Below are positions 91 to 62,296 of a DNA stretch of 64,000 bases, piece by piece. The first letter of the stretch is position 1; each line of letters starts with the position of its first letter. A program made the translations under genes and the position numbers. The stretch spans positions 1-64,000 of the forward strand of contig NZ_JAUHPW010000011.1 of the NCBI RefSeq assembly GCF_030418455.1. Direction: 5' to 3'. This DNA comes from Demequina litoralis. Lineage in GTDB: Bacteria > Actinomycetota > Actinomycetes > Actinomycetales > Demequinaceae. The notes beneath the pieces were generated by a model that searched no databases, was not told where the DNA came from, and saw nothing but the letters and a program-made list of their open reading frames with translations.

Positions 91-1103
91 CGAGGCGGCA
101 CAAAAGCGGAGGGACCACGGTCCTCCCACGCATGCGCCGCGGCACGCCCGGCCGCCTCGAGCCACCGGTCCGGCTCCCGCATCGCGGCCTCCCGCGAGCC
201 CGCGAGCGCCGTCAGCGACGCGGACCACACCCCGGGGTCGACCGCCACCTCGCCGGCCACGACCGCCACCCGTGGGAAGGCCGCGAGCGCATGCCCGGTC
301 ACCTTGCCCAGCGAGGACTGCGAGTCGAAGCGCCCCTCCCCCGTGACCACCAGGTCCGCGTCCCGCCCCGCCTCCTCGAGGCCCGTCAGGCGCGCCATCT
401 CCGGCGCGCCCTCGACGAGCGCGGCGCCCCACGCGAGCAGCGCATAGCCCACGCCTCCGGCGGCGCCGGCGCCCGGCACCGTCGGGTCGGCCCCCAGCCG
501 CGCGGCGACCGCCTCGAGGCGCTCCTCGAGCACGGCCACGTCGAGAGCGGACGCGCCCTTCTGGGGCGCGAAGACGGCGGCCGCGCCCGCCGGTCCGAGC
601 AGGGGCGCGCGCACGTCGCACAGCACCGTGGCGCCGCCCGGGGGCGGCCGCCGGTCGCCGAGCGCCTCGAGCACGGGCAGCCCTCCGTCGGTCGACGCCG
701 ATCCCCCGAGGGCGACGACGAGCCGCGTCGCACCCGCGTCGAGCGCGTGCGCCATCACCTCGCCGAGCCCGCGCGAGGTCGCGCGCAGGGCGTCGAGCTC
801 CGGCATCAGGTGCATCCCCGCGACCACGGCGAGCTCGCACAGCGCCGTGCCGTCCCCGAGGTCCAACCATGCGCCCACCACGGGAGCGCCCGCGGGACCC
901 GTGACGAGGCCGCGGCTGCGCAGCTCCGCCTCGGGCCGCGCGTGTCGCACCCCGGCGAGCGTCCCCTCGCCGCCGTCGGCCTGCGGGATCTCGACCACCG
1001 CATCGTCCGGCCGCACGGACCTCCAGCCGCGCGCGATCGCGGCGGCCGCACGCTCGGCGGGCCACGTCCCCTTCAACGTGTCCGGCGCGACGACGACGCG
1101 CAT
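87..1103 (-). CDS. glxK: Glycerate kinase (GlxK/GarK type)
   Basis: The protein (338 aa) begins MRVVVAPDTLKGT, the typical start of type-I glycerate kinases, and contains IPQADGGEGT (about residue 48), the ALGGSASTDGG segment and the late VTGEGRFDSQS motif. These enzymes phosphorylate glycerate with ATP, feeding glyoxylate or sugar-acid breakdown into glycolysis. The frame is open further upstream, but ATG at 1103 is chosen because the family N-terminus starts there. Only 2 bases separate it from the stop codon of the preceding gene (1106-1768), so the two are probably one transcript. The length is slightly below the usual 370-380 aa because the glycine-rich middle is compact. Confidence 0.88.
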   Translation of the reverse strand: MRVVVAPDTLKGTWPAERAAAAIARGWRSVRPDDAVVEIPQADGGEGTLAGVRHARPEAELRSRGLVTGPAGAPVVGAWLDLGDGTALCELAVVAGMHLMPELDALRATSRGLGEVMAHALDAGATRLVVALGGSASTDGGLPVLEALGDRRPPPGGATVLCDVRAPLLGPAGAAAVFAPQKGASALDVAVLEERLEAVAARLGADPTVPGAGAAGGVGYALLAWGAALVEGAPEMARLTGLEEAGRDADLVVTGEGRFDSQSSLGKVTGHALAAFPRVAVVAGEVAVDPGVWSASLTALAGSREAAMREPDRWLEAAGRAAAHAWEDRGPSAFVPPR

Positions 1104-1105
1104 CG

Positions 1106-1768
1106 TCACGCCTTGCCGCGCGCCCGGGCGACCACCCGCCCGCGCTGCGAGCGCGGGAAGCGGTCGAGCATCGCGCGGATCTCCGCGGCGGTCGCGTCGG
1201 AGCCGAAGATCTCGGTCGGCGGCTCGAACATCACGCCCGCCGCGAGCGGGCCCGCGTCCACCGGGTCGAAGCCGAGCGCGTCGACGAGCGCCGCCACGGC
1301 CGCCCTGGCACCCGCATCGTCCGCCGCGACCGCGATGCCGCGGCGGTCCGGGTCGCCCGCGGGCCGCCCGAGGTTCTCGAGCTCCCACACGCTCGCATGG
1401 TTGAGCGCCTTGACGACGCGCGCGCCGTCGAGGAAGGCGGCCACGGTCTCGGACGTCGAGGTGGTGGGGTCCTCGAGGTCGGGACGGGCGCCGTCGATCT
1501 CCCACCAGTGGTTCATCACGTCGACGACGATCCGGTCGCGCAGCAGGTCCGCCGGCAACGACCGGTAGCGGCCGAGCGGGATCGCGAGGATCACCACATC
1601 GGCGGCGCACGCAGCCGCCGGGTCATCGCCGGACGATGCGACGGTCACCTCGATCCCCGCGTCGCGGCACAGCCGCGCGATCGCCGCGCCGAACCGGCCG
1701 GCGCCCAGGATGCCGACGGCGCGGTGCGCCGAGGGTGCCACCTCGTCGCGCGCATCGTCCACGCGCAC
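1106..1768 (-). CDS. NADP/F420-dependent oxidoreductase-like Rossmann protein
   Basis: A 220 aa protein with an N-terminal dinucleotide-binding fold: VGILGAGRFGAAIARLCRDAG around residues 18-38, then VVILAIPLGRY and a VVDVMNHWWE segment. This pattern fits the family of NADPH:F420 reductase-like and NADP oxidoreductase coenzyme-F420-dependent proteins (pfam F420_oxidored type). The substrate cannot be read from sequence. The start at 1768 is a GTG with no clear ribosome binding site; an internal GTG at 1738 is an alternative. The codons after the first GTG contain the dispersed GGACGATGCG 10-mer. It is followed 2 bases later by glycerate kinase. Confidence 0.65.
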   Translation of the reverse strand: MRVDDARDEVAPSAHRAVGILGAGRFGAAIARLCRDAGIEVTVASSGDDPAAACAADVVILAIPLGRYRSLPADLLRDRIVVDVMNHWWEIDGARPDLEDPTTSTSETVAAFLDGARVVKALNHASVWELENLGRPAGDPDRRGIAVAADDAGARAAVAALVDALGFDPVDAGPLAAGVMFEPPTEIFGSDATAAEIRAMLDRFPRSQRGRVVARARGKA

Positions 1769-1786
1769 GAGGCTACCGATCCCGGG

Positions 1787-5759: not shown

Positions 5760-6524
5760 TCAGGCAGAGGGTCCCTCGACGGTCGTCCAGCCCGGATGCT
5801 TGGGCAGCCGGCCGTCGCCCGACGAGCGCCCCGTGAGCCGGCGGCCGATCCACGGCAGCACGTAGCGCCCCACGTAGGCGGCCTCCGCGAGGACCCCCGG
5901 ACGGCCCGCGTCGCCCTCGGGCGCGACGGGCAGGTCGGTCTCGACGTCCAGCGCGGCGAGCACCCGCGCGGCGACGCGCGAGTGGCCCAGCGGGTTGAGG
6001 TGGATGCGGTCGGTGTCCCAGTAGGCGGCGCGGCGCATCTCGGGGTCGCGGTAGTTGTCGACGAACGTCACGTGGTCGTGCTCGGCCTCGAGGCGGTCGA
6101 CGATCGCCATGAGCTCGTCCGCGCGCTCCGAGAAGGAGCGCCCGCGCGGGAGCCGCTCGGTCGGGTCGGGACCCGAGAGGATGACGAGCCGCACCCCCGC
6201 ATCGGCGGTCCGGTCGACGACCCGTCGGGTGAGCGCCTCGACGCGCGCGCCGTCCCAGCCGGGCCGCATCATGTCGTTGCCCGAGCCGTTGAACGTCAGC
6301 ACGTCCGGCCGCGGGTCGAGCGCGAGCGCGGCGTCGAGCTGCTCGGTGGCGATCGGCTCGATGAGGCGGCCGCGGATCGCGAAGTTCGCGTACTCGACGG
6401 AGCCGTGCGCGGCCGCGAGGCCGAGCGCGACGAGGTCGGCCCACCCGCGCATCGTCCCGTCGGGCTGCGGGTCCCCGACCCCCTCCGTGAAGCTGTCGCC
6501 GATCGCTGCGTATCTCACGACCAT
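5760..6524 (-). CDS. SGNH/GDSL-family hydrolase
   Basis: A 254 aa protein starting MVVRYAAIGDSFTEGVGD. GDS carries the nucleophilic serine (block I) at about residue 10. Block III is seen as FNGSGND and block V as DRIHLNPLGHS, which contains the catalytic Asp and His. There is no signal peptide, so it is probably cytoplasmic. The family contains esterases, lipases and acetylxylan esterases; the substrate cannot be assigned. ATG at 6524 is chosen because the family motif begins directly after it; upstream in-frame codons lie in low-complexity sequence. Confidence 0.85.
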   Translation of the reverse strand: MVVRYAAIGDSFTEGVGDPQPDGTMRGWADLVALGLAAAHGSVEYANFAIRGRLIEPIATEQLDAALALDPRPDVLTFNGSGNDMMRPGWDGARVEALTRRVVDRTADAGVRLVILSGPDPTERLPRGRSFSERADELMAIVDRLEAEHDHVTFVDNYRDPEMRRAAYWDTDRIHLNPLGHSRVAARVLAALDVETDLPVAPEGDAGRPGVLAEAAYVGRYVLPWIGRRLTGRSSGDGRLPKHPGWTTVEGPSA

Positions 6525-6624: not shown

Positions 6625-8349
6625 TCACGCGCCGGAACCGTGCTCCGCGGGCTCGCCCACCGCCCGGTCCACGGCGCCCTCGACTGCCAGCTCGGCGGCG
6701 CGGGCCGCGGCATGGCGCCCGGCCAGGTAGCCGAAGACGAGCGCCGGGCCGAGCGTCGAGCCTGCTCCCGGGTACGTGCGCCCCACCACCGAGGCCGAGC
6801 AGTTGCCGGCGGCGTAGAGGCCCGCGATCACGGCACCCTCGGTGTCGAGCACGCGGGCGTGCTCGTCCGTCAGCAGCCCGCCCTTGGTGCCGAGGTCGCC
6901 GAGCACGATCTTCACCGCCACGAACGGACCCTTCGCGATCTCGCCGAGGTTCGGGTTCGGGCCGTGCGTCGGGTCGCCGTAGTACTGGTCGTACGCGTCC
7001 TTGCCGCGCCCGAAGTCCTCGTCGACCCCGGAGCGCGCGAACGCGTTGAAGCGCTGGATGGTGCGCTTGAAGGTCGGCTTGTCGACGCCCATCTTCTCGG
7101 CGAGCTCCTCGAGCGTGTCCGCCTTGACCGCGACGCCCTCCTCGTAGAGGTGCTTGGTGCCCATGAGGAACGGGTTGTTGAGGTAGCGACGCCGGTGGCG
7201 CACGTCGAGGACCATCCAGCTGTGGTTGGTGCGCTCGAGGCCGCGCTCGATCATGGCGTGGCCGAAGTCGACGTAGCTGGTCGACTCGTCGACGTAGCGG
7301 CTGCCCTCCTGGTCGACGACCATCGAGAACGGCATCGAGCGCTCGGAGACGATGAAGATCGGCCCGGACTTGCTGCTCGGCGCGACGGAGGGACCCCACC
7401 ACGCGTCGTCCATCAGCGCGACGTCCGCTCCGTGACGCATCGCGACCTCGATCGCGCCGCCCGTGTTCGCGGGGTTGCCGGACGACTGCTCCTGGTCGAG
7501 CCCCTGGTACTCCGCGCGCCATGCGGCGTTGTGGTCGAAGCCGCCGGCGCCGAGGTGCACGCCGACGCGGGTGCGGATGCGGCGCTCGCCGCCCGGCCCA
7601 CCGACGACCGCCCCGAGGCACACGCCGTCCTCGATCACGAGGTCGACCACGGGCGACTCGAGGCGCACCTCCGTGTGCTGCTCGAACTTCGCGATGTACA
7701 TGAGGCGCGCCGCGAGGGACATGCCCAGCCCGGTGAGCCGCTTCCCGGTCGCCAGGCCGCCGAGCGCCCGGAACACCAGCGTGGCGCCCCCCACGAAACC
7801 GCTCGGCGTCGACCATGCGCGCGCGAGCAGGTACGTGTCGCCCGCGAACAGCGGCAGCCCCGGCGGCAGCGTCTCCCTGGCGTGGCCGTACCAGTCGCCC
7901 AGGTCCTTGACGTCGAACGGTGCAGGCTCGACCGTGCGCCCGCCCGCGATGCCGCCGGGCAGGTCCGGGTAGTAGTCCGGGTACTTCTTGGCGGTCTTCC
8001 ACACCAGGCCGTGGCCCTCGAGCCAGGTGTGGACGGTCGGCGCCGTCCGCACGAAGGCGTGGCGGCGCTCGAGGGACGATGCGGGCCCCACCTCCTCGGG
8101 TGTGCCGACGCATGCGTCCAGGTAGGTGAGCACCTTCTCCTCGGAGTCCTCGACCCCGATCTCCTTCATGCCCGGGTGGCCGGGCAGCCAGCACCCGCCG
8201 CCGCTCATCGCCGTCGAGCCGCCCCACTCGGGCGAGCCCTCGACCACCAGCACCTCGAGCCCGTCGTCGGCCGCCGCGATCGCCGCGGACATCGCCGCCG
8301 CACCCGTCCCGGCGACCAGGAGGTCGACCTCCTCGTCCCACTCCGCCAT
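6625..8349 (-). CDS. 3-ketosteroid delta1-dehydrogenase-like FAD flavoprotein
   Basis: A 574 aa FAD-binding protein. The N-terminal ADP-binding motif is VDLLVAGTGAAAMSAAIAAA. WGGSTAMSGGGCWLPG follows and is typical of the 3-ketosteroid dehydrogenase/fumarate reductase family. Near the C-terminus GLYAAGNCSASVVG and TYPGAGSTLGPALVFGYLAG match the substrate-binding region of KstD enzymes. KstD inserts a C1-C2 double bond into 3-ketosteroids, but related enzymes act on other cyclic ketones and no other steroid genes are nearby. Two near-identical palindromes lie directly upstream. A zinc alcohol dehydrogenase gene follows further upstream in the same direction. Confidence 0.78.
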   Translation of the reverse strand: MAEWDEEVDLLVAGTGAAAMSAAIAAADDGLEVLVVEGSPEWGGSTAMSGGGCWLPGHPGMKEIGVEDSEEKVLTYLDACVGTPEEVGPASSLERRHAFVRTAPTVHTWLEGHGLVWKTAKKYPDYYPDLPGGIAGGRTVEPAPFDVKDLGDWYGHARETLPPGLPLFAGDTYLLARAWSTPSGFVGGATLVFRALGGLATGKRLTGLGMSLAARLMYIAKFEQHTEVRLESPVVDLVIEDGVCLGAVVGGPGGERRIRTRVGVHLGAGGFDHNAAWRAEYQGLDQEQSSGNPANTGGAIEVAMRHGADVALMDDAWWGPSVAPSSKSGPIFIVSERSMPFSMVVDQEGSRYVDESTSYVDFGHAMIERGLERTNHSWMVLDVRHRRRYLNNPFLMGTKHLYEEGVAVKADTLEELAEKMGVDKPTFKRTIQRFNAFARSGVDEDFGRGKDAYDQYYGDPTHGPNPNLGEIAKGPFVAVKIVLGDLGTKGGLLTDEHARVLDTEGAVIAGLYAAGNCSASVVGRTYPGAGSTLGPALVFGYLAGRHAAARAAELAVEGAVDRAVGEPAEHGSGA

Positions 8350-8523: not shown

Positions 8524-9507
8524 TCAGCCCATGCGAATCACGAGCGAGCCGCCGGCGCGGCCGGCACGCAGGTCCATCAGCGCATCGTCCACCCCGTCGA
8601 AGCCGTACGTGGTGACGGCGGGCGCGAGACGCAGGTTGCGCGCGAGGGCGAGGAACTCGGCGCCATCGGCCCTGGTGTTGGCGGTGACGGAGCGCAGGTC
8701 GCGCTCGAAGAAGAGCGACCTGTCGTAATCGATCCCGGGGATCGGCGACATGTGGATCCCCGCGCTCACCACGGTGCCGCCGCGCACCGTCGCATCGAGG
8801 GCCTGCGTGAGGATCGCCCCCACCGGCGCGAACACGATGGCGGAGTCGAGCGGCTCGGGCGGGGCGGCATCCTCTCCGCCGACGAAGTCGACCTCGAGCT
8901 CGCGAGCGAGCGCCTGATTGCGCTCGCCGCGCGTGATCGCGACCACGGTCGCGCCTGCCGCCTTGGCGAGCTGCGCGGTGATCGACGCGCTCGAGCCGAA
9001 GCCGTAGATCCCGAGCACCCCGCCCGGCGGGAGGTTGGCGCGGCGCAGCGCACGGTACCCGATGATGCCGGCGCACAGCAGCGGCGCGAGGCCGAGCGCC
9101 TCCTCGTCGCGCGGCAGCGGGTACGCGTACGCCTCGGGCACCGTGAGGAGCTCCGCATAGCCGCCGTCGTGGTCCCAGCCGGTGAACGTCGCCTCGGGGC
9201 AGAGGTTCTCGCGGCCGGACCGGCACCAGCGGCACGTCCCGCAGGTCCGGTGGAGCCACGCGACGCCGACCCGGTCGCCCTCGTCGATCGACCGCACCGC
9301 CTCGCCCGCGCCGACGACCGTCCCCACCACCTGGTGGCCGGGGATCACGGCGGGACGATGCACGGGCAGGTCGCCGTCGATGACGTGCAGGTCGGTGCGG
9401 CACACACCGCACGCCTCGACGCGCACGAGCAGCTCGTCGGCGGCGGGCACCGGGTCGGGCACGGACTCGCGTCGCAGCGCGCCGTCGCGGACCTTCCAGG
9501 CGTCCAT
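8524..9507 (-). CDS. Zinc-dependent alcohol dehydrogenase (MDR superfamily)
   Basis: A 327 aa medium-chain dehydrogenase. Visible features are the catalytic-zinc region CGVCRTDLHVIDGDLP with GHQVVG, the four structural-zinc cysteines (CGTCRWCRSGRENLC), and a nucleotide-binding motif GIYGFGSSASITAQLAKAAG at about residue 160. This matches the propanol-preferring or aldehyde-reductase-like zinc ADHs. ATG at 9507 is favoured by GGGGGAGG a few bases upstream; the longer in-frame extension is implausible. It is transcribed toward the KstD-like gene, but the double operator in the 174-base gap argues for separate control of the latter. Confidence 0.85.
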   Translation of the reverse strand: MDAWKVRDGALRRESVPDPVPAADELLVRVEACGVCRTDLHVIDGDLPVHRPAVIPGHQVVGTVVGAGEAVRSIDEGDRVGVAWLHRTCGTCRWCRSGRENLCPEATFTGWDHDGGYAELLTVPEAYAYPLPRDEEALGLAPLLCAGIIGYRALRRANLPPGGVLGIYGFGSSASITAQLAKAAGATVVAITRGERNQALARELEVDFVGGEDAAPPEPLDSAIVFAPVGAILTQALDATVRGGTVVSAGIHMSPIPGIDYDRSLFFERDLRSVTANTRADGAEFLALARNLRLAPAVTTYGFDGVDDALMDLRAGRAGGSLVIRMG

Positions 9508-9707: not shown

Positions 9708-12080
9708 GTGGCCCTCAGCCGCAGCACACGCCTCACCTTCGGGGCGATAGCCGCCACCGCCGCCCTCACCGGCGCGGCCGCCGCGACACCCGCGTGGGGC
9801 GACCAGCCCGCCACGCCGCCCGTACCGACCTTCGACGAGGTCACCGTCCACGACCCGTCGATCGTGACGTCGGGCGACGAGGTCTGGATCTTCGGATCGC
9901 ACGGCGCGTCGGCGTACACGACCGACCTCATGCACTGGACCCAGAACTCGATCGACCTGAGCCAGGACGCGGACAACCCGCTGTTCGAGGACATCTACGC
10001 GGAGCTCGAGGAGACCTTCGCGTGGGCGCAGACCAGCACCCTGTGGGCCTCCGACGTGATCCAGCTCGCGGACGGCCGCTACTACCTGTACTACAACGCC
10101 TGCAAGGGCGACTCCCCGCGGTCGGCGCTCGGCGTCGCGGTCGCCGACGACGTCGACGGCCCGTACGAGGACCTCGGGATCCTGCTCAAGTCCGGCATGT
10201 GGGACGAGGAGTCCGAGAACCCCGGCGAGATCTACGACGCCACCGTGCATCCCAACGCCGTCGACCCCGACGCGTTCTTCGACGCCGAGGGCGACCTGTG
10301 GATGGTCTACGGCTCGTACTCCGGCGGCATCTTCATCCTGCAGATGGACCCCGAGACCGGCCTCCCGCTGCCCGACCAGGGCTACGGCACGCACCTCGTC
10401 GGCGGCAACCACGCCCGCATCGAGGCGCCGACCATCCGCTACGACGAGGAGACCGGCTACTACTACCTCTTCCTGTCGTACGGCGGCCTCGGCGCCGACG
10501 GCGGCTACGAGGTCCGCGTCGCCCGCTCCGAGAAACCCGACGGGCCGTACCTCGACGCCAACGGGCACGACATGTCGACGGTCGCGGGCGCGCCCGGCAC
10601 CATCTTCGACGACGACTCGATCGAGCCCTACGGCGTCAAGATCATGGACGGCTACCTGTTCACGCGCGAGGTCGGCGACCCCGGCACCGGCGAGGGCACC
10701 GGGTACGTCTCCCCCGGCCACACCTCCTGGTACGACGACCCCGCCACGGGCGACTCGTACATGGTGCTGCACTCCCGCTTCCCCGGCACCGGCGAGATGC
10801 ACAACGTCCGCGTCAACAGGATGTACATGAACGCCGATGGCTGGCCCGTCGTGTCGCCCTTCCGCTACGCGGGCGAGACCGACCGCAAGATCAAGCGCGA
10901 CGAGGTCGTGGGCACCTGGCAGGTGGTCGACCTCGGCACCGAGGTCAGCGCCGCGCCGGATCTGCCGGTCGACGTCACGCTCACCACCAACGGCAAGCTC
11001 ACGGGTGGCCTCACCGGCACGTGGAAGCTCACCGGGCACGACCAGGCCGAGCTCATCACGCCCGATGCCACGTACACGGGCGTGTTCGCGCCCGTGTGGG
11101 ACGACCAGCGCGAGACCTGGACGGTGGGCCTCACGGTCCAGTCCTCGGAGGGCGTCTCGCTGTGGGGCCGGCAGGTCGACGTGCTGAGCGGCCAAGCCGC
11201 GGTGGACGCCGTCGTCGCCGACCTCACGCTCGGCGACACGTCCGCCGTGGTCGCGGACCTCGACCTGCCCACCACCGGGACCGGCGAGACCACCATCGCG
11301 TGGACCTCGTCCGACCCGGCGCACGTGTCCGCCACCGGCGACGCCACCCGGCCCGGCGTCGGGGAGGACGATGCGACGGTGACCCTGACCGCGACGATCG
11401 CCAACGGCGCTGCGGTCCAGGCCGTCCCGTTCTCGGTGGTCGTCAAGGCGCGACCCGAGCCCAGCCTCGTGGGCGCATGGTCCTTCGAGGGCACGCTCGC
11501 CGACGATGAGGCCGCCCTCGGCACGCCGTGGGTCACGGGCGACCGGGCCGACAACACCGGCGGCAGCGTCTCGTACGCGCCCGACGGCGTCGACGGCGCC
11601 GCGCTCCACCTCGACGGCACCTCCGGCGTGCGCCTCCCCGACGGGCTCGTCCAGGGCGACACGTACTCGGTGTCGATGTGGCTCCGTCCCGAGAAGCTGA
11701 CCGGGTTCACCACCGCCTTCTTCGCCGCGAGCGCGTCGAACAGGTGGCTCAGCGTGGTCCCGCAGGGCTGGAACGGCGAGACGATGCTGTGGTCCAACGA
11801 CGGCGCCGGCTGGTACGACGGCATCACGGGGCAGCTCGTCCCGGTCGGCGCGTGGACGCACGTGGCGTTCACGGTCGACGCCGGCGAGGTGGCGCTGTAC
11901 GTCGACGGCACGGATGTGGGCGCGAACCCGGCGTTCACCGATGTCCTCACCAGCCCGTCCGCCACCTTCGCGCTCGGCGTGAACTACTGGGACACCCCGT
12001 TCCAGGGCGACATCGACGAGCTCGCGGTGTGGACGTCGGCACTCTCCCCGGAGGACGTCGCCGCGCTCGCCGCCGGCTGA
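9708..12080 (+). CDS. Secreted GH43 arabinanase-type glycoside hydrolase with Ig-like and LamG domains
   Basis: A 790 aa secreted enzyme. Residues 1-31 form a Sec signal peptide. A five-bladed GH43 catalytic domain spans about 40-385, with the base Asp in VHDPS (about 48), the second Asp in VDPDAFFD (about 187) and the acid Glu in RIEAPT (about 237). A lipocalin-like GH43 C-terminal module follows (about 398-486), then an atrophied-Ig-like domain (about 490-583) and a LamG/concanavalin-like domain (about 585-788). The family includes endo-1,5-alpha-L-arabinanases; exact specificity is inferred. GTG 9708 follows AGGAG. The neighbouring lipoprotein gene is a clear paralogue of the first 486 residues. 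Confidence 0.85.
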   Translation: MALSRSTRLTFGAIAATAALTGAAAATPAWGDQPATPPVPTFDEVTVHDPSIVTSGDEVWIFGSHGASAYTTDLMHWTQNSIDLSQDADNPLFEDIYAELEETFAWAQTSTLWASDVIQLADGRYYLYYNACKGDSPRSALGVAVADDVDGPYEDLGILLKSGMWDEESENPGEIYDATVHPNAVDPDAFFDAEGDLWMVYGSYSGGIFILQMDPETGLPLPDQGYGTHLVGGNHARIEAPTIRYDEETGYYYLFLSYGGLGADGGYEVRVARSEKPDGPYLDANGHDMSTVAGAPGTIFDDDSIEPYGVKIMDGYLFTREVGDPGTGEGTGYVSPGHTSWYDDPATGDSYMVLHSRFPGTGEMHNVRVNRMYMNADGWPVVSPFRYAGETDRKIKRDEVVGTWQVVDLGTEVSAAPDLPVDVTLTTNGKLTGGLTGTWKLTGHDQAELITPDATYTGVFAPVWDDQRETWTVGLTVQSSEGVSLWGRQVDVLSGQAAVDAVVADLTLGDTSAVVADLDLPTTGTGETTIAWTSSDPAHVSATGDATRPGVGEDDATVTLTATIANGAAVQAVPFSVVVKARPEPSLVGAWSFEGTLADDEAALGTPWVTGDRADNTGGSVSYAPDGVDGAALHLDGTSGVRLPDGLVQGDTYSVSMWLRPEKLTGFTTAFFAASASNRWLSVVPQGWNGETMLWSNDGAGWYDGITGQLVPVGAWTHVAFTVDAGEVALYVDGTDVGANPAFTDVLTSPSATFALGVNYWDTPFQGDIDELAVWTSALSPEDVAALAAG

Positions 12081-12132: not shown

Positions 12133-12185
12133 TCGCCGTGTCCGGGGACGATGCGCGGGCCGGGGGCGGGTTTGGAGCGCGTGTT

Positions 12186-13735: not shown

Positions 13736-14584
13736 GTGACGGACCCCGCCCCCGCATCGTCCCGCCGCGCGATCTTCCTCGACGTCGACGGCACCTACGC
13801 CCACCACGGCCGCGTGCCGGAGGCGCACGCGGAGGCCGTGCGCGCCGCCCGCCGCGCCGGACACCTCGTGCTGCTGTGCACCGGGCGCCCGGTGTCGCTG
13901 CTCCCCGAGCACATCACCGCGGCCGGCTTCGACGGCTTCATCGCGGGCGCGGGCGCGTACGCGATCCTCGGCGACGAGGTGCTGCTCGACACCCGCTTCC
14001 CCGCCGCCCTCGCCGCCCGTGCCATCGAGGCGCTCGACGCGCACGGCGCGCTGTACTTCCTCGAGGCGCCGGACGCGACCCACGCGCGCCCCGCGACGAT
14101 CGAGGCGATGTCCGCCTTCCTGCCGCGCCGGAGCGTCCACTCCGACGCCGAGGAGCGCGGGCGTCGCGACGTGACGTCCGCGCTGCGTCCGAGCGAGGAG
14201 CTCGCGGGGGTCGAGTTCGGCAAGATCACGAGCGTCCACGCCGAGGTGCCGCTGCCGGAGATCGCCGCGCTCGTCGGTCCCGACGTCGCGGTGATCCCGA
14301 GCTCGATCCCCGACCTCGGGCCGGGCGCCGGCGAGATGTTCCTCGCGGACGTGCACAAGGCCGTCGGCATCGCCGCGGTGGTCGAGCGGCTGGGGCTCGA
14401 GCGCGCGCAGGTGGTGGCGTTCGGCGACGGCCCGAACGACCTCGAGATGCTCGAGTATGCGGGTGTCGCGGTCGCGATCGAGGGCTCGGACCCGGAGCTG
14501 CTGGACCTCGCCGACCACGTGGCCGGACCGCCCGACCGGGAGGGCCTCGCCGCGGCGTTCGCGGAGCTCGGCCTGCTGGGCTGA
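13736..14584 (+). CDS. HAD-superfamily hydrolase (Cof type)
   Basis: A 282 aa protein with the HAD motif I IFLDVDGTYAHHG at about residues 13-25, motif II in LLCTGRP, a lysine in GEMFLADVHKAVGI, and motif IV in VVAFGDGPNDLEML. This order, with a cap domain inserted after motif II, marks the Cof/type IIB phosphatases. They dephosphorylate sugar phosphates, nucleotides or cofactors. The start is a GTG 10 bases after the GH43 stop, so cotranscription is possible. It ends 2 bases before the convergent hydrolase gene. Confidence 0.85.
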   Translation: MTDPAPASSRRAIFLDVDGTYAHHGRVPEAHAEAVRAARRAGHLVLLCTGRPVSLLPEHITAAGFDGFIAGAGAYAILGDEVLLDTRFPAALAARAIEALDAHGALYFLEAPDATHARPATIEAMSAFLPRRSVHSDAEERGRRDVTSALRPSEELAGVEFGKITSVHAEVPLPEIAALVGPDVAVIPSSIPDLGPGAGEMFLADVHKAVGIAAVVERLGLERAQVVAFGDGPNDLEMLEYAGVAVAIEGSDPELLDLADHVAGPPDREGLAAAFAELGLLG

Positions 14585-18142: not shown

Positions 18143-18202
18143 GGCACACCTCCTGTACCGCCGCATCGTCCCACGCGACGGCTCCCGCCGCCCGGGAAAC
18201 AC

Positions 18203-22403: not shown

Positions 22404-22468
22404 GGGGGGACTCCTCCTGATGTTGTCTCCCGCGATTATGGCACCGCCGGGGACGATGCGGGGACGGC

Positions 22469-23752: not shown

Positions 23753-23836
23753 GGCACTCGAGTCTAGGAGCCTCGAGGGTGCCTGCCCAGGGGTGGCTGG
23801 CACCTTCCCCCTGCCGCCGGGGGACGATGCGGGGGC

Positions 23837-29475: not shown

Positions 29476-29510
29476 GGACGATGCGCGGGATCCGCTCCCC
29501 CGCATCGTCC
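29476..29510. repeat. Inverted pair of GGACGATGCG forming a hairpin
   Basis: GGACGATGCG at 29476-29485 and its reverse complement at 29501-29510. With adjacent G/C bases the arms reach about 14 bp around a 7-base centre. It lies 26 bases upstream of obgE and 72 bases past the rpmA stop codon. Confidence 0.9.
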
Positions 29511-30426: not shown

Positions 30427-30450
30427 CGGGTGGACGATGCGGCGCGGGCA

Positions 30451-31046: not shown

Positions 31047-33562
<2,516 letters not shown>

Positions 33563-52207: not shown

Positions 52208-52396
52208 CGCATGCCCGGACGATGCGACGAGGGGCGGCCACCGGGAGCCTTGGCCGTCCACGCGTGACCGCCCGAGGACCGAACTCTCCAGGAACGACGG
52301 GAAGGCCCGCCTCATGCGGAGTGGACACCCGTCTGGTTTCGGGTGATGCTGACAAGGTTGGACGCTGAAAAAGGGGCAGTACAAGGGGGTCCGCCC

Positions 52397-53819: not shown

Positions 53820-54761
53820 TCAGCCCCCGAAGTGGTCCCAGCCGAGGTCCTCGGGCACCTCGCCGTCGACGCGGACGCCCGCGAACGCGTCCGTCGTCTC
53901 GCCGATGACGGTCCACCCCGCCGGCACCGCGGACCCGCGCGGGAAGACCGCGAGCATGTGATGGTCCTCGCCGCCCGTGAGTGCCCACGGCCGCGGGTCG
54001 ATCTGCAGCTCGAGAGCCGCGAAGCGCGCACCCTCGTGCACCGGGACGTCCGCGGCGCGGATCGCGATCCCCACCTCGGAGCGGCGCGCGATCCGCGCGG
54101 CGTCGCGCAGCAGCCCGTCGGAGATGTCCATGAGCGCGGTCGCGCCGTGGAGCGCCGCCTCGAGACCGGCGCCGATGCGCGGGCGCGGGCGCAGGAACAG
54201 CCCGATCGTCTCCTCGTCGATGCGCCGACCCTCCGTGAGCTGCACGTAGCCCGCCGCGGCCGCCCCGAGCGGCGCGGACACCGCCACGACCTGCCCGGGC
54301 AGCGCATCGTCCCGCGTCACCGGCTCGGTGCCGTGCGTCTCCCCCAGGACCGTGACGCACACGGAGACCTCGCGCGCGCCGGAGAGGTCTCCGCCGATCA
54401 CGCCGACGCCGTGCGGCTCGCACGCCTCGCGCAGCCCGTCGGCGAAGCGCAGGACCCAGTCGGCGTCGAGCGACGGCGGCGCCGCGAGCGTGACCTGGAG
54501 CGCGGTGGGCACGGCGCCCATCGCGTCGATGTCCGCGAGGTTCTGCATCGCGGCGCGCCAGCCCACGTCCTCGGGGCCGGACCAGTCCATGCGGAAGTGG
54601 CGGTCCTCCATGAGGATGTCCGAGGACACCACGAGGTCGCCGTCGACCGCGAGCACCGCCGCGTCGTCGCCGGGGCCCAGGATCTCGGAGTCGGTCACGG
54701 GAAGCCGCGGGGCGAAGGCCGCGATGAGCGCGTCCTCCCCCATCTCGCCGATCGTCGTCAT
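53820..54761 (-). CDS. thiL: Thiamine-monophosphate kinase ThiL
   Basis: A 313 aa enzyme making thiamine diphosphate from the monophosphate. Motifs are EILGPGDDAAVL, VSSDILMEDRHFRMDWSGPE, NLADIDAMGAVPTALQVTLA, GVGVIGGDLSGA, MDISDGLLRDAARI and WALTGGEDHHML. ATG 54761 begins the conserved N-terminus. A GGACGATGCG copy lies in the 84-base gap to the divergent TfoX-N gene. Confidence 0.96.
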   Translation of the reverse strand: MTTIGEMGEDALIAAFAPRLPVTDSEILGPGDDAAVLAVDGDLVVSSDILMEDRHFRMDWSGPEDVGWRAAMQNLADIDAMGAVPTALQVTLAAPPSLDADWVLRFADGLREACEPHGVGVIGGDLSGAREVSVCVTVLGETHGTEPVTRDDALPGQVVAVSAPLGAAAAGYVQLTEGRRIDEETIGLFLRPRPRIGAGLEAALHGATALMDISDGLLRDAARIARRSEVGIAIRAADVPVHEGARFAALELQIDPRPWALTGGEDHHMLAVFPRGSAVPAGWTVIGETTDAFAGVRVDGEVPEDLGWDHFGG

Positions 54762-54845
54762 GGCGTCAAGCGTAGGGCGGGACGATGCGGGACCCCGCCA
54801 CACGCCCGGGTCGCGATCGCGCCGGGGTTGCGCGAGCATCGTGCC

Positions 54846-55181
54846 ATGGAGATGCCCCGACCGACCGACGCGCAGAAGGACGCCTTCCGCGCGCTCGTGC
54901 CCGACGTCCCGGGCGTCGAGGTGCGCCCCATGTTCGGACAGCTAGCCGCGTTCGTGGGCGGGCACATGTTCATGTGCCTGTTCGGCGACCGCGTCGCCTT
55001 CAAGCTCGCGTCCCCCGACCTCGAGGCGGCGCGCCGCCTCCCCGCGGGTGAGCCGTTCGCCCCCGGCGGGCGGACGATGCGCGAGTACGTCGCGCTGCCG
55101 CTCGCGGCCCCCGGCCCCGACGACCTGGTCGGGCAGGCCCTCGCCTACGTATCGACCCTGCCGCCGAAGCCGGGGCGCTGA
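54846..55181 (+). CDS. TfoX N-terminal-domain protein
   Basis: A 111 aa protein: EVRPMFGQLAAFVGGHMFMC, VAFKLASPDLEAAR and MREYVALPLAAP. This is the TfoX/Sxy N-terminal fold. In Vibrio and Haemophilus that domain is part of competence regulators. Single-domain actinobacterial members have no demonstrated role, so no competence function is claimed. It converges on the oxidoreductase gene 10 bases downstream. Confidence 0.78.
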   Translation: MEMPRPTDAQKDAFRALVPDVPGVEVRPMFGQLAAFVGGHMFMCLFGDRVAFKLASPDLEAARRLPAGEPFAPGGRTMREYVALPLAAPGPDDLVGQALAYVSTLPPKPGR

Positions 55182-57149: not shown

Positions 57150-57277
57150 GATCGGACCGCCGGTCGGCGCGCCCGGGGCGGCGCGGTCACGTGGGCGTGG
57201 ACGATGCGCGGCCCGGGTGCCGCGGGCCCGAGGACGGTGACGCCCGCGAGGCGGGCGGGGCTGGTGGTGGATGTCAT
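57146..57277 (-). CDS. Possible 43 aa leader ORF coupled to the oxidoreductase genes
   Basis: ATG 57277 (GGGGAG upstream) reads MTSTTSPARLAGVTVLGPAA to a TGA sharing ATGA with the next gene. Composition is unremarkable and no homologue is recognised. It contains one GGACGATGCG. It could be a coupling leader peptide or chance. Confidence 0.35.
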   Translation of the reverse strand: MTSTTSPARLAGVTVLGPAAPGPRIVHAHVTAPPRARRPAVRS

Positions 57278-58031: not shown

Positions 58032-58042
58032 GGCATCCCCCG

Positions 58043-58158: not shown

Positions 58159-59514
58159 TCAGGCGTGCGCGCCCTGGAGCCACGCGCCGCGGCGGGTGAT
58201 GCGGGCGTACGCGATCCCGAGGAACACCCCTCGCGCGACGTTGAAGAGCAGGAAGGCGCGCCACAGGTCGTGGTTGCGCGCATCGTCGATCCACCACAGC
58301 CCGGCGAGCAGCGCAGGCACGAAGACGAGCAGCGCGGACTCGGCCATCGTCACCGCCATCGCGCGGGTGCGCCCCGAGCCGAGGAACACGCCGTCGCACA
58401 GGTACGCGAGCGACGAGGCGAGGGGCAGCCACACGACCCAGCCGATGTACTCGTCAGCAGCCGCCGTCACCTCCGGCAGGGACGTGAGCACCGCGATGAA
58501 CGGCCCCGACGCCACCAGGTAGAGCAGGCTGAAGACGGCGCCGATCGCGACGGCGGGCAGCGCCGAGGCCGCGACCGCGCGATGGAAGGCGGGCACGTCG
58601 CGCCTGCCGATCTCGCGCGACACCATCGCCTCGGCGGCGTGCGCGTAGCCGTCCTGGCCGTAGCTCGCGAGCAGCATGAGCTGCATGAGGATCGCGTTGG
58701 CCGCGAGGATGTCGGGGCCCAGGCGTGCGCCGTACGCGGTGACGAACGTGAGCACCGCGTAGAGGATCGCCGTACGCACGAAGAGGTCCGTGTTCATGGC
58801 CGCCAGGCGTCGCCAGCCGGACCGCAGACCGCGGCCCCGCCAGCGCCGCACCGCGGCACGCACGGGCGACGATGCGGCGCGCCACCACAGCACGACGGCG
58901 AGCGCGAGGCCCAGCCACTCGGCGATCGCGGTGGCGGAGGCCGCTCCCGCGGCGCCCCAGCCGAGCCCGCCGACGAATGCGACGTCGAGGCCGAGGTTGA
59001 CGACGTTGACCGTCGCGACGATCGCGAGCGGTCGTCGGGTGTCCCCCGCGCCCACGAACCAGCCGGAGATGACGAGCGTGAGCAGCGCCGCAGGCACCGA
59101 CGCCATGCGGATCCACGCGTACTGGATCGCGAGGTCGCGCACCTCGCCCGCCGGCGCGAGGACCGACATGATCCCGGGGATCGCGACCCACTGGAGGATC
59201 ACGGCGCCCGCGCCGATCGCGACCGCGAGCATCGCCGCGCGCTGCGCGTGGGCGACCGCCGCATCGTCCCTCCCGGCGCCGAGCGCCCGTCCGACGAGCG
59301 ACGTGGTCCCGGTGCGCAGGAAGCCGGTGAGCCACATGATCGCGCTCAGCACCGTGGCGCCGAGCGCGACGGCGCCGATGTTGGTGGCGTCGGAGTAGTG
59401 GCCCAGCATCGCGGTGTCCACCAGCCCGACGAGCGGGACGGTGACGTTGCCCACGATCGCGGGCCAGGCCAGGGAGAACGCGCGCCGATGCGGGAGCTGG
59501 GCGAGCGCGGTCAC
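58159..59514 (-). CDS. MATE-family efflux transporter (DinF-like)
   Basis: A 451 aa protein with twelve hydrophobic segments in two homologous halves. Motifs are LAWPAIVGNVTVPLVGLVDT (TM1), AMLGHYSDATNIGAVALGAT and FLRTGTTSLVGRALGAGRDD. MATE pumps export cationic drugs using H+ or Na+. GTG 59514 is the only start giving a full TM1. Confidence 0.92.
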   Translation of the reverse strand: MTALAQLPHRRAFSLAWPAIVGNVTVPLVGLVDTAMLGHYSDATNIGAVALGATVLSAIMWLTGFLRTGTTSLVGRALGAGRDDAAVAHAQRAAMLAVAIGAGAVILQWVAIPGIMSVLAPAGEVRDLAIQYAWIRMASVPAALLTLVISGWFVGAGDTRRPLAIVATVNVVNLGLDVAFVGGLGWGAAGAASATAIAEWLGLALAVVLWWRAASSPVRAAVRRWRGRGLRSGWRRLAAMNTDLFVRTAILYAVLTFVTAYGARLGPDILAANAILMQLMLLASYGQDGYAHAAEAMVSREIGRRDVPAFHRAVAASALPAVAIGAVFSLLYLVASGPFIAVLTSLPEVTAAADEYIGWVVWLPLASSLAYLCDGVFLGSGRTRAMAVTMAESALLVFVPALLAGLWWIDDARNHDLWRAFLLFNVARGVFLGIAYARITRRGAWLQGAHA

Positions 59515-60174: not shown

Positions 60175-60206
60175 CTGAGCCGCGTGGAGGAGCTTCCGGG
60201 GGAAGG

Positions 60207-61295
60207 TCAGCGCAGGCCCACGGGGCGCTCGAGCGCGACCGTGAGCAGCGTCTCGACGAGCTCGCCGTACGAGATGCCGGCGGCGGCGGCCATGCGCGGG
60301 TACATCGACGTGGGCGTGAAGCCCGGCATCGTGTTGATCTCGTTGACCACCACGTCGCCGGAGTCCGTGACGAAGACGTCGACCCGCGCGAGCGACTCGG
60401 CGCCGACCGCGAGGAAGGCGCGCTTGGCGTAGTCCGCGACGGTCGCGGCCACGGCACCCTCGAGCGAGGTCGGGCACAGCAACGTCACCGCGGCCTCGTC
60501 GAGGTACTTCGCGTCGAAGTCGTAGAAGTCGTGGTCGCCACCGGTGATGATCTCCCCGGCCGGCGACGTGAGCAGCCCGCCCGCGGTCGCGAGGACCGCG
60601 GTCTCGACCTCGCGGCCGACGACGGCGGCCTCGATCAGCACCTTGGGGTCGTGCTTCTGGGCGTCGGCGACGGCCGCGTCGAGCGCGGCCCAGTCGGACA
60701 CCTTCGAGATGCCCATCGACGAGCCGGCGCGCGCGGGCTTGACGAAGACGGGCAGGCCCAGCGCCTCGATCTCGAGCCGCTGCTCCTCGAGACCGCGATG
60801 CGCGGTGATCGTCACGTCGCGCGCGACCGGCAGGCCGGCGTTGCGGAACGCGGTCTTCATGAACTGCTTGTCCATGCCGGCGGCGGACGCGAGCACGCCG
60901 GACCCGACGTAGCGCACGTCCACGAGCTCGAGGGCGCCCTGGATGGTGCCGTCCTCGCCGAACGGGCCGTGAAGCAGGGGGAACACGACATCGATCTCGC
61001 CGAGCTCCCGGAGCCCGTCGGGCCCCGCGACGCGCCACGCGCGCGAGCCCGCCTCGAACGGCGGCAGCACGACCTCGTCGGAAGGAGGCACGGTGGGCAT
61101 CGCGCCGGACGCGATCGCCCAGTCGGCGGGATCGGACGAGGCGAGGGTCCAACGACCCTCGCGGGTGATGCCGATCGCGACGACGTCCCAGCGATCGCGG
61201 TCGATCGCCCCGAGCACACCGCCCGCGGTCACGCACGAGACGCCGTGCTCGGTCGAGCGGCCGCCGAACACGATCGCGACCGTGGGCCTCGCCAT
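60207..61295 (-). CDS. ddl: D-alanine--D-alanine ligase
   Basis: A 362 aa ATP-grasp enzyme making D-Ala-D-Ala for peptidoglycan: VAIVFGGRSTEHGVSCVTAG, PLLHGPFGEDGTIQGALEL, VFVKPARAGSSMGISKV, ARVDVFVTDSGDVVVNEINT then MPGFTPTSMYP. The Ser-Tyr-type loop cannot be used to infer D-Lac specificity by eye. The ATG shares TGATG with gpsA. Confidence 0.96.
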   Translation of the reverse strand: MARPTVAIVFGGRSTEHGVSCVTAGGVLGAIDRDRWDVVAIGITREGRWTLASSDPADWAIASGAMPTVPPSDEVVLPPFEAGSRAWRVAGPDGLRELGEIDVVFPLLHGPFGEDGTIQGALELVDVRYVGSGVLASAAGMDKQFMKTAFRNAGLPVARDVTITAHRGLEEQRLEIEALGLPVFVKPARAGSSMGISKVSDWAALDAAVADAQKHDPKVLIEAAVVGREVETAVLATAGGLLTSPAGEIITGGDHDFYDFDAKYLDEAAVTLLCPTSLEGAVAATVADYAKRAFLAVGAESLARVDVFVTDSGDVVVNEINTMPGFTPTSMYPRMAAAAGISYGELVETLLTVALERPVGLR

Positions 61296-62296
61296 CAGTC
61301 GACCTCCGACTTGCGCGGCCGGGACAGCAGCGCGCCGATGACGGACTCGACCGGGGCCTCGCCCGCGAGCATCGTCACCACGCCGTCGCAGATGGGCACG
61401 TCGACGCCCGCGCCGCGCGCGAGCTCCTGCACCGCGGACGCGGTCTTCACGCCCTCGGCGGTGCCGCGCGTGAGCGAGATCGCCTCGTCGAGCGTCCGCC
61501 CCTGGCCCAGGTGCGAGCCGAGCGTGTGGTTGCGCGACAGCGGCGACGCGCACGTCGCGATGAGGTCGCCCATGCCGGCGAGACCGGAGAACGTCTCGGG
61601 ACGCGAGCCGAGCGCGAGACCCAGCCGCGTGATCTCCGCGAGGCCGCGCGTGATGACGGTCGCGGTGGTGTTGTTGCCGAAGCCCAGCCCGTCGGTGATG
61701 CCCACCCCCACGGCGATGACGTTCTTGTACGCGCCGCACAGCTCGACGCCCACGAGGTCGTCGTTCGTGTACGGACGGAAGTAGGACGATGCGGTCGCGG
61801 CAGCGACCAGCTCGGCCGCCTCGGCGTCCACGGACGCGACGACGGTCGCGGTCGGCTGCCGCTGCGCGATCTCCTTCGCGAGGTTCGGCCCGGAGACCGC
61901 CGCGACGCGCTCGGCGGGCAGGTCCCAGACCTCCGCGAGCACCTCGGACATGCGGGCATGCGTGCCGAGCTCGATGCCCTTCATGAGCGACACGGCGACC
62001 GCGCCGGAGGGCACGAGGCCGGCGAACGGCGCGATGATCTGGCGCGCATGCTGCGCGGGCACGGCGACGGCGACCACGTCGGCGCCCGCGAGCGCCTCCT
62101 CGATGTCGGTGGTCGCGCGGATGCCCGCGGGCAGCTCGACACCCGGGATCGCGCCCTCGTGGCGGCGGTCGTCGCGGATGGACCGGACCACCGCATCGTC
62201 CCTGCCCCACAGGGTGACGTCGGTGCCGGCATCCGCCATCACGGCGGCGTACGTGGTGCCCCACGCACCCGCGCCGAGGACAGCGGCGCGGGTCAT
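61295..62296 (-). CDS. gpsA: Glycerol-3-phosphate dehydrogenase [NAD(P)+]
   Basis: A 333 aa enzyme forming sn-glycerol 3-phosphate for phospholipids: AAVLGAGAWGTTYAAVMADA, VSLMKGIELGTHARMSEVLA, ELCGAYKNVIAVGVGITDGL (catalytic Lys) and SGLAGMGDLIATCASPLSRN. It overlaps plsC (ATGA) and ddl. Confidence 0.97.
   Translation of the reverse strand: MTRAAVLGAGAWGTTYAAVMADAGTDVTLWGRDDAVVRSIRDDRRHEGAIPGVELPAGIRATTDIEEALAGADVVAVAVPAQHARQIIAPFAGLVPSGAVAVSLMKGIELGTHARMSEVLAEVWDLPAERVAAVSGPNLAKEIAQRQPTATVVASVDAEAAELVAAATASSYFRPYTNDDLVGVELCGAYKNVIAVGVGITDGLGFGNNTTATVITRGLAEITRLGLALGSRPETFSGLAGMGDLIATCASPLSRNHTLGSHLGQGRTLDEAISLTRGTAEGVKTASAVQELARGAGVDVPICDGVVTMLAGEAPVESVIGALLSRPRKSEVD

What the first reader, a model, noticed from the sequence alone, without database searches (positions are those of the whole stretch)
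999..62201. A 10-mer, GGACGATGCG, is repeated at least 39 times in 64 kb
At about 74% GC a 10-mer of this composition should appear about 0.3 times on both strands. I count 21 plus-strand and 18 minus-strand copies. They fall in unrelated genes in different reading frames (DDA, ASS and RIV peptides) and about ten are intergenic, so the selection or spread acts on DNA, not protein. The D-D-A copies use GAT, although GAC is the preferred Asp codon here. This behaves like a genome-wide signal: an uptake sequence, a Chi or KOPS analogue, a nucleoid-protein or methylation site, or a spreading micro-element. None can be chosen from one window.
Basis: partly seen in the sequence, partly recalled or inferred. 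Interest (0 to 1): 0.88.

Follow-up and report, generated by a model that had tools for sequence, protein, structure and literature searches.

The report
Candidate DNA-uptake tag in Demequina
A ten-letter DNA word repeated more than a thousand times in this Demequina genome, with differently spelled versions in many sister species, looks like a self-recognition tag for taking up DNA from relatives, a kind of system known so far from two families of Gram-negative bacteria.

Summary
Confirmed. GGACGATGCG occurs 39 times in the window (0.88 expected) and 1,564 times in the 3.02-Mb genome (reversed word: 5). The host is a Demequina (Actinomycetota) near D. phytophila. The signal acts on DNA: rare codons are forced, 62 of 196 copies are intergenic though 9% of DNA is, strands are near balance, and close inverted pairs form hairpins. 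The key new fact is dialects: 35 of 47 Demequinaceae genomes are loaded with GGACGATGCG (15), GGACGATGCC (1, from a sample), GGCCGATGC plus G, C or T (17) or GCCCGACGC (2). A few orthologous sites (3 of 19 comparable positions) are respelled in place. Type IV pili, ComEC, ComEA and DprA are near-universal in the family. This matches DNA uptake sequences (DUS/USS) of Neisseriaceae and Pasteurellaceae, in a phylum where my searches listed none. Not shown: transformation of any Demequina, motif-dependent uptake, or a receptor; the pilins compared do not follow the dialect. Best reading: an independently evolved uptake sequence (about 0.67); main rival, a HIP-like methylation or repair signal.

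The parts
999..1008 (-). GGACGATGCG copy
1313..1322 (-). GGACGATGCG copy
1631..1640 (+). GGACGATGCG copy
1751..1760 (-). GGACGATGCG copy
6448..6457 (-). GGACGATGCG copy
8074..8083 (+). GGACGATGCG copy
8581..8590 (-). GGACGATGCG copy
11366..11375 (+). GGACGATGCG copy
12146..12155 (+). GGACGATGCG copy, intergenic by own gene finder
12333..12342 (-). GGACGATGCG copy
13566..13575 (+). GGACGATGCG copy
13753..13762 (-). GGACGATGCG copy
18162..18171 (-). GGACGATGCG copy, intergenic by own gene finder
19515..19524 (+). GGACGATGCG copy
22451..22460 (+). GGACGATGCG copy, intergenic by own gene finder
22853..22862 (-). GGACGATGCG copy
23822..23831 (+). GGACGATGCG copy, intergenic by own gene finder
26110..26119 (+). 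GGACGATGCG copy
29476..29485 (+). GGACGATGCG copy, intergenic; left arm of inverted pair 29476-29510, between the ObgE gene (27923-29449, minus) and the gene upstream of it
29501..29510 (-). GGACGATGCG copy, intergenic; right arm of inverted pair (hairpin, 15-base spacer)
30432..30441 (+). GGACGATGCG copy, intergenic by own gene finder
32948..32957 (+). GGACGATGCG copy
32999..33008 (+). GGACGATGCG copy
36707..36716 (-). GGACGATGCG copy
37780..37789 (+). GGACGATGCG copy
39120..39129 (-). GGACGATGCG copy
42421..42430 (+). GGACGATGCG copy
42580..42589 (-). GGACGATGCG copy
42862..42871 (-). GGACGATGCG copy
48591..48600 (+). GGACGATGCG copy; left arm of inverted pair 48591-48624 (not classed intergenic)
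48615..48624 (-). GGACGATGCG copy; right arm of inverted pair (14-base spacer)
52217..52226 (+). GGACGATGCG copy, intergenic by own gene finder
54303..54312 (-). GGACGATGCG copy
54780..54789 (+). GGACGATGCG copy, intergenic by own gene finder
55072..55081 (+). GGACGATGCG copy
57199..57208 (+). GGACGATGCG copy, intergenic by own gene finder
59260..59269 (-). GGACGATGCG copy
61784..61793 (+). GGACGATGCG copy
62192..62201 (-). GGACGATGCG copy

Best explanation
GGACGATGCG (extended form about GGGACGATGCGnnGG) is the DNA uptake sequence of this Demequina. A DNA receptor on a type IV competence pilus binds double-stranded DNA that carries the word better than other DNA (inferred). The pilus retracts, ComEA and ComEC bring a strand into the cell, and DprA/RecA-dependent recombination installs it (inferred from the machinery present). 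Because word-bearing fragments are preferentially imported, mutations that create the word spread and losses are repaired; the word piles up wherever sequence is free to change, chiefly intergenic DNA and tolerant peptides (the distribution is shown, the drive is inferred). When the receptor's preference shifts in a lineage, existing sites are respelled in place to the new dialect (seen at a few positions; the receptor shift is inferred). Close inverted pairs have been co-opted as hairpins, perhaps terminators (predicted structure shown, function inferred).
For: (1) Density: 1,564 copies in 3.02 Mb, control 5; 0-102 copies in the 273 genomes of other families among the 297 of the order searched. 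(2) Dialects: 35 of 47 Demequinaceae are assigned one; whole-genome counts of the assigned word are 659-2,018 in 34 of them, and G022's GGACGATGCC was counted only in a 64.5-kb sample (16 vs 0.7 expected). (3) A rigid core and softer edges: single-base variants at positions 4-9 are about at chance, those at 1, 2, 10 and A3C are in excess; dialects differ at positions 2, 3 and 10 (and T7C in GCCCGACGC). (4) No marked strand bias. (5) Intergenic 62 of 196 against 9.0% of DNA; excess also in 100-kb samples of three other-dialect genomes (25 of 61 vs 16.7%, 15 of 52 vs 13.4%, 19 of 41 vs 19.4%). The 2007 DUES paper reports 65% of H. influenzae copies in reading frames and no orientation bias (passages). 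(6) Convergent inverted pairs, spacer 4-20: 5 against 0.35 expected; inverted pairs are reported for DUS dialects (passages). (7) In-place respelling: of 49 B-genome places orthologous to an A site, 6 have the B word and 0 the A word, control words 0 of 103; these 49 are 19 distinct positions, of which 3 show the B word. In reverse, of 150 A-genome places orthologous to a B site 21 have the A word (3 of 15 distinct positions) and 8 the B word, against 0 of 67 with the A word in genomes called 'none'. (8) Machinery: PilT over cut-off in 47 of 47, ComEC 46, ComEA 45, 14 of them over the curated cut-off, DprA 46, 40 over the cut-off; a pilB-T-C-A-minor pilins-D-M-N-O cluster in the window's genome (most names mine from sequence features). 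(9) G017 holds two dialects, 927 A words and 664 GGCCGATGC, as S. muelleri does for DUS.
Against: I found no report that a Demequina is transformable (searches, listings only). No receptor is identified: alleles of the pil cluster do not follow dialect (G000 and G014 share dialect A and 98% AlaS, but PilB 80% and PilM 44%), and the orphan pilins of G000 and G014 are 36% identical in the part compared. A high-scoring orphan pilin outside the pil cluster is not listed for several dialect-bearing genomes (e.g. G006, G007, G013, G042). Genomes without clear dialect also keep pili and, nearly all, Com proteins. The core is not fully invariant: dialect E differs at position 7. The pil cluster, though apparently exchanged between species, is poor in sites (A genomes 11 in 129 kb against 51 in 162 kb of flanks), and foreign-dialect words are not enriched in it (5 inside, 17 outside). 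Respelling rests on 3 of 19 and 3 of 15 distinct positions in the few loci held, so the Fisher values (9e-4, 3e-4), which treat places as independent, overstate it; none of the 78 gap-free pairs between A sites and E genomes shows the E word. Three of 15 A genomes fall outside the main A clade.
Confidence: 0.67

Rival explanations
1. A HIP-like element: a lineage-specific DNA methyltransferase plus biased mismatch repair creates and maintains the word, as modelled for HIP1 in cyanobacteria; dialects would reflect different enzymes.
For: HIPs are also very frequent, are replaced by alternative words in some lineages that have matching methyltransferases, and their 1-base deviations cluster at the ends (abstract of PMC4390886). 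The rigid core with softer ends here would fit an enzyme site.
Against: HIPs are palindromic; this word is not, and has a further conserved GG two bases on. Inverted pairs and 3.5-fold intergenic enrichment fit DUS well. Methyltransferases and methylation were not examined, so this rival was not really tested.
Confidence: 0.15
2. Binding site of an abundant nucleoid or chromosome-organising protein whose specificity drifted between clades.
For: Spacing slightly more even than random (variance/mean of 10-kb counts 0.74); both contigs sampled are populated, on both strands.
Against: A chromosomal protein binding over 1,000 sites would have to change specificity repeatedly within one genus; near-exact conservation of 10 bases at so many sites is unusual for such proteins (established knowledge); some genomes of the genus have no clear word.
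Confidence: 0.1
3. Chi-like recombination hotspot or KOPS-like translocase guide.
For: Genome-wide 10-mer of high abundance.
Against: Chi and KOPS are strongly strand-biased (established knowledge); here 793/771 overall, and the 50-kb bins of the window, of 400 kb of contig 1 and of 100 kb in each of three other-dialect genomes are near balance, the most uneven being 22:14. Intergenic enrichment is not expected.
Confidence: 0.03
4. A spreading micro-element (REP/MITE-like) or a terminator hairpin family.
For: Five close inverted pairs in 464 kb form hairpins; 10 neighbour pairs within 60 bp against 4.9 expected.
Against: Most copies are single and inside genes (132 of 196) and share no flank beyond about five bases.
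Confidence: 0.03
5. Codon-pair or peptide bias without DNA-level function.
For: In genes most copies lie in one frame on either strand, giving D-D-A or A-S-S.
Against: Spelling exceeds codon usage about 15-fold (DDA) and 100-fold (ASS); a third of copies are intergenic.
Confidence: 0.005

Closest known systems
DNA uptake sequence (DUS) dialects of Neisseriaceae, receptor ComP
   Same: Short non-palindromic word in very many copies (2,257-5,918 quoted for dialects in the passages), dialects that differ by few bases around a core, two dialects in one genome possible, intergenic excess, inverted pairs as hairpins, type IV pilus uptake (PMC3630211 passages).
   Different: Unrelated word and GC-rich host; monoderm actinobacterium; no transformation data; no ComP-like receptor proven. 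Orphan pilins here match the N-terminal pilin motif in Pfam (12 of 12) and, in the PDB, chiefly pilin N-termini; no ComP entry was listed.
Uptake signal sequence (USS) of Pasteurellaceae
   Same: About a third of copies outside reading frames in H. influenzae and no orientation bias (PMC1939737 passages); about one copy per kb (a figure of 1.08 per kb stands in the passages) against 0.52 per kb here.
   Different: USS has a core with AT-rich flanking segments; here only a short GG extension was seen.
HIP1 and alternative HIPs of cyanobacteria
   Same: Short word at very high density with lineage-specific replacements (abstract).
   Different: HIPs are palindromes tied to methyltransferases; this word is not palindromic and methylation is untested.
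Natural competence of Micrococcus luteus (Actinomycetota)
   Same: Same phylum, ComEA/ComEC (passages).
   Different: M. luteus uses Tad/Flp pili, and the passages I saw mention no sequence preference; Demequina has a PilB/PilT/PilC/PilM-N-O type IV pilus.

Membership tests
DNA uptake sequence (DUS/USS type) | Genome-wide over-representation of a short exact word far above expectation | tested here: met
   1,564 vs 5 for the reversed word; 196 vs 6.9 in 464 kb
DNA uptake sequence (DUS/USS type) | No strand or replication-direction bias | tested here: met
   793/771; near balance in 50-kb bins; no closed genome examined around origin and terminus
DNA uptake sequence (DUS/USS type) | Enrichment in permissive, intergenic DNA, and inverted pairs | tested here: met
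   62 of 196 vs 9.0%; 5 pairs vs 0.35
DNA uptake sequence (DUS/USS type) | Dialects shared by related species around a common core | tested here: met
   35 of 47 genomes; ObgE tree, 30 rows: 12 of 15 A genomes plus the A2 genome form one clade, three A genomes (G017, G020, G028) lie outside; core position 7 changes in dialect E
DNA uptake sequence (DUS/USS type) | Type IV pilus and ComEA/ComEC/DprA present | tested here: met
DNA uptake sequence (DUS/USS type) | A receptor whose sequence follows the dialect | tested here: not met
   pil-cluster alleles and 12 orphan pilins do not follow dialect; other candidates (e.g. ComEA) not compared. I therefore do not file it as a ComP-DUS system, only as something that works like one
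DNA uptake sequence (DUS/USS type) | The word increases DNA uptake or transformation | not testable with these tools
   needs bench work
HIP element | Palindromic word | tested here: not met
   GGACGATGCG is not its own reverse complement (sequence)
HIP element | Matching orphan methyltransferase | not tested
   no methyltransferase search made
Chi / KOPS | Strong strand bias along replichores | tested here: not met
   on parts of four genomes; replichores themselves not mapped
REP/MITE-like element | Shared flanks beyond the word | tested here: not met

The most novel reading that the evidence does not exclude
Demequina has evolved, independently of Neisseriaceae and Pasteurellaceae, a complete sequence-tagged mating system: several DNA dialects within one genus, read by an as yet unknown receptor on a monoderm type IV pilus, which restrict recombination to same-dialect relatives. 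It would be, as far as my searches go, the first such system in Actinomycetota and in any monoderm.
Probability: 0.58. Interest if true: 0.92.

Novelty: new variant of a known kind. Interest (0 to 1): 0.86.

Why it matters
Strong uptake preferences are described for two Gram-negative families (PMC7811141, passages), and most competent species are said to take up DNA without sequence preference (PMC12040237, passages). A third, independent case in high-GC monoderms would show that the phenomenon is convergent and more general, would imply natural competence in a genus where my searches listed no report of it (13, 57), and would offer a natural experiment: many sister species with several dialects plus some without a clear one, in which receptor evolution, molecular drive and recombination barriers can be tested. 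In-place respelling that changes a housekeeping protein (Ser to Ala in a protein I recognise as AlaS, in three B genomes) would be a direct record of drive overriding protein sequence.

Tried and rejected
Chi/KOPS: set aside on strand balance. Peptide or codon bias: rejected. Micro-element: set aside on flanks. Presence or absence of pili or Com genes as the reason for motif-poor genomes: rejected, they are near-universal. Minor pilins of the pil cluster as dialect readers: two gene architectures occur but do not follow dialect. Orphan pilin as a ComP equivalent: one family (alignment A1) in 12 of 13 genomes fetched (G022's stretch gave a different, longer pilin that I left out); its identity does not follow dialect, it is not listed at high score for several dialect-bearing genomes, and no ComP model or entry was hit. 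Import of the pil cluster from other dialects: foreign words not enriched there. Survey of the 75 named actinobacterial loci of 10 kb or more (of 80 fetched) for dispersed 10-mers: D. phytophila (L009) has 12 GGACGATGCG; a few others have different 10-mers at 6-10 copies against 0.1-0.4 expected (e.g. L016, L027, L038, L052) and L057 a palindrome; not followed up, and the loci are too short to judge. Literature: searches (20 of 32 listed; 0 papers; 15; 8; 15 of 34 listed; 4; 15 of 145 listed; 1) listed no actinobacterial uptake sequence; only open-licence PMC papers are held. No structure was predicted: the tool's stated sources do not name loci taken with the fetch from genomes, so I did not send them.

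In one search and the trees, G011, G012 and G032 (409-584 copies of GGCCGATGC) were counted as 'none'; D. phytophila's locus L009 and G018, probably the same genome, both counted as A targets. Several scripts used my own gene finder trained on the genome itself, not a curated annotation; in lower-GC relatives it missed genes.

Full report
WHAT IS THERE. The word GGACGATGCG occurs 39 times in the 64-kb window, 21 on the plus and 18 on the minus strand, at the coordinates given. Dinucleotide-preserving shuffles give 0.88, a third-order Markov model 1.06. In the whole genome (3,024,998 bases in 22 contigs) there are 793 + 771 = 1,564 copies against 5 for the same letters read backwards. The host is a Demequina: the ObgE protein of the window (named) is 95% identical to that of Demequina phytophila NBRC 109391, whose 21.5-kb locus L009 holds 12 copies. 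One of the unnamed relatives, G018, is probably that very genome, because a contig of it has the same length, 501,236 bases.

IT ACTS ON DNA. In 464 kb of the genome (window plus 400 kb of contig 1) there are 196 copies against 6.9 expected. Of these 62 are intergenic, although only 9.0% of the DNA is (p = 5e-19; my own gene finder); 132 lie inside genes, 77 with and 55 against the gene, and 2 overlap an end. They force rare codons: 80 of 159 Asp-Asp-Ala are spelled GAC GAT GCG (5.5 expected) and 43 of 91 Ala-Ser-Ser as GCA TCG TCC (0.4 expected). Per kb of intergenic DNA, copies are densest between convergent genes (11 in 4.7 kb) and least dense between divergent genes (13 in 10.3 kb), so they do not look like promoter elements (my division).

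ANATOMY. Single-base variants show a rigid core: changes at positions 4-9 occur at about chance level, whereas changes at positions 1, 2 and 10 and A3C are in excess. At the 62 intergenic copies, free of codon effects, G precedes the word in 73%, and G stands at the third and fourth base after it in 76% and 60%, giving about GGGACGATGCGnnGG. Five convergent pairs with spacers of 4-20 bases were seen against 0.35 expected (P = 3e-5); each is predicted to fold into a long hairpin, for example window 29476-29510 and 48591-48624. Strands are near balance in the 50-kb bins looked at, and counts per 10 kb are slightly more even than random (variance/mean 0.74). Copy density is 0.61 per kb in the window, 0.39 in the 400 kb of contig 1 and 0.52 in the genome.

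DIALECTS. A search of the family (47 genomes) showed a split: 15 genomes with 711-1,564 copies and 32 with 4-235. Among the 297 genomes of the order searched, the 273 outside the family have 0-102 copies. Many motif-poor Demequina proved to be rich in their own version. K-mer counts without a preset motif, on samples of 40-125 kb, gave GGCCGATGCG in G001, G002, G015, G030 and (as GCCGATGCG) G027; GGCCGATGCC in G007, G010, G025, G029, G040, with G or C in G031 and weakly in G038; GGCCGATGCT in G005, G016, G021 and (as GCCGATGCT) G003; GGACGATGCC in G022; and GCCCGACGC in G026 and G037; G041 was put with B on a 17-kb sample. Whole-genome counts confirm: GGCCGATGC 659-2,018 copies in 17 genomes, against reversed-word controls of 44-110, and GCCCGACGC 1,101 and 1,206 copies in G026 and G037, controls 146 and 100. 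The picture is not perfectly clean. G017 carries both the A word (927) and GGCCGATGC (664), and other A genomes have 134-488 GGCCGATGC (G013 488, G042 487). Twelve genomes show no clear dialect; three of them (G011, G012, G032) have an intermediate 409-584 copies of GGCCGATGC, and G004, G012, G036 and G043 have 274-349 GCCCGACGC, two to four times their controls.

PHYLOGENY AND POSITION. On an ObgE tree of 30 genomes, 12 of the 15 A genomes together with the A2 genome form one clade (support 81/86); G017, G020 and G028 (all A) lie outside, the latter two next to two genomes without clear dialect. The six B genomes group with one C and one D genome (97/92); the two E genomes are unresolved. Some sites are homologous in place. 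Of 49 unique places in B genomes that align to an A site, 6 carry the B word, none the A word; five control 10-mers gave 0 of 103 for the corresponding single change. Of 150 places in A genomes that align to a B site, 21 carry the A word and 8 the B word; in genomes called 'none' 0 of 67 carry the A word and 2 the B word. For the other dialects the own word stood at 2 of 14 (A2), 4 of 67 (C) and 2 of 29 (D) places aligned to A sites, and 11 of 63 (C; 9 more had the B word) and 4 of 38 (D) aligned to B sites. Fisher values are 9e-4 and 3e-4, but places in related genomes are not independent: the 49 places are 19 distinct positions, 3 of them respelled, and the 150 places are 15 positions, 3 of them with the A word. 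One of these lies in the gene C1:300221-302893, which I recognise as alaS (not checked by a family search): Ala-Ser-Ser in G000, Ala-Ser-Ala in three B genomes (the G000 reading is mine from the printed sequence). Among A genomes 90 of 255 places are identical. So respelling is seen, but on few positions.

MACHINERY. PilT-family ATPases score over the cut-off in 47 of 47 genomes, ComEC in 46, ComEA is found in 45 (14 over the curated cut-off) and DprA in 46 (40 over the cut-off). In the window's genome a cluster at contig 1, 284,785-297,714, reads pilB, pilT, pilC, a pilin, three larger minor-pilin-like genes, a prepilin peptidase and pilM, pilN, pilO-like genes (names from position and sequence features, PilT/PilB also). 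This type IV pilus differs from the Tad/Flp pilus used by the competent actinobacterium Micrococcus luteus (passages of PMC6370729 and PMC12849477).

THE RECEPTOR IS NOT FOUND. The pil cluster appears to be exchanged between species: G000 and G014 share 98% of AlaS but 80% of PilB and 44% of PilM, and the minor pilins occur in two architectures that ignore dialect. A separate orphan pilin of about 130 residues, with an invariant pair of cysteines, was found in 12 of the 13 genomes whose stretch I could fetch, but G000 and G014, which share a dialect, are 36% identical in the part compared, while G014 and the B genome G015 are 69% identical. It matches only the N-terminal pilin motif convincingly in Pfam, and pilins in the PDB, ComP not among them. 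So either specificity rests on few residues, or the receptor is another protein. The pil cluster is also poor in sites in A genomes (11 in 129 kb against 51 in 162 kb of flanks) and in B/C/D genomes (10 inside against 80 outside, 0.07 and 0.44 per kb).

COMPARISON. DUS of Neisseriaceae come in eight dialects around a CTG core, are consistent with the core-genome phylogeny, are common in permissive and intergenic DNA and form inverted pairs; one genome holds two dialects (passages of PMC3630211). For H. influenzae 65% of copies are in reading frames (35% for N. gonorrhoeae), about 10% are inverted repeats, and there is no orientation bias (passages of PMC1939737). The sequence features of this kind that I tested are met; a dialect-matched receptor was looked for in the pilins and not found; uptake itself cannot be tested here. 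The main rival is a HIP-like, methylation-linked signal: HIPs too have lineage-specific replacements (abstract of PMC4390886), but are palindromes; methyltransferases were not searched for here. PMC7811141 names Pasteurellaceae and Neisseriaceae as the two families with strong preference, PMC12236230 names Neisseria, and PMC12040237 says most competent organisms are sequence-independent, all seen in passages. My searches listed no case in Actinomycetota, and of the 145 papers of one search on the words themselves the 15 listed are on other subjects.

VERDICT. The most likely explanation is an independently evolved DNA uptake sequence with dialects in the genus Demequina, as far as my searches go the first in a monoderm phylum. 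Shown: abundance, DNA-level selection or drive, approximate strand symmetry, predicted hairpin pairs, dialects, presence of the machinery, and respelling at a few positions. Inferred: competence, uptake bias, receptor, terminator role of the pairs.

Noticed in passing
G000 contig 1, 284785-297714 and the same cluster in 42 other genomes (L167-L186, L233, L237, L247-L266): The type IV pilus cluster appears to be exchanged between Demequina species (AlaS 98% but PilM 44% between G000 and G014), has two minor-pilin architectures, lower GC than its flanks in the A genomes and few motif copies.
   Followed up: partly
464 kb of G000; also samples of G026, G006, G008, G040: A second over-represented word, GGGGGAGAGG / CGGGGGAGA (19 vs 0.4 and 41 vs 3.2 expected in G000); related strings recur in several Demequina. 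Possibly another intergenic element.
   Followed up: no
G017: One genome carries two dialects at once, 927 GGACGATGCG and 664 GGCCGATGC, as if in transition.
   Followed up: partly
G022 contig 1, 423579-424363: ComEC is matched in two pieces, one with a TGA inside; sequencing error or loss of competence cannot be told apart. This genome has the variant dialect GGACGATGCC.
   Followed up: no
L057 (Galbitalea sp. SE-J8) and L052 (Herbiconiux daphne): Other repeated words in 21-kb loci: palindrome GTCTCGAGAC with CCTCGACCAA in L057, CGGATGCCGC (10 vs 0.4 expected) in L052; unexplained.
   Followed up: no
G000 contig 1, 107067-121292: Largest gap without a motif copy in 400 kb (14.2 kb; about 12.9 kb would be expected as the maximum by chance), in a 20-kb bin of lower GC (0.69); possibly imported DNA.
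   Followed up: no
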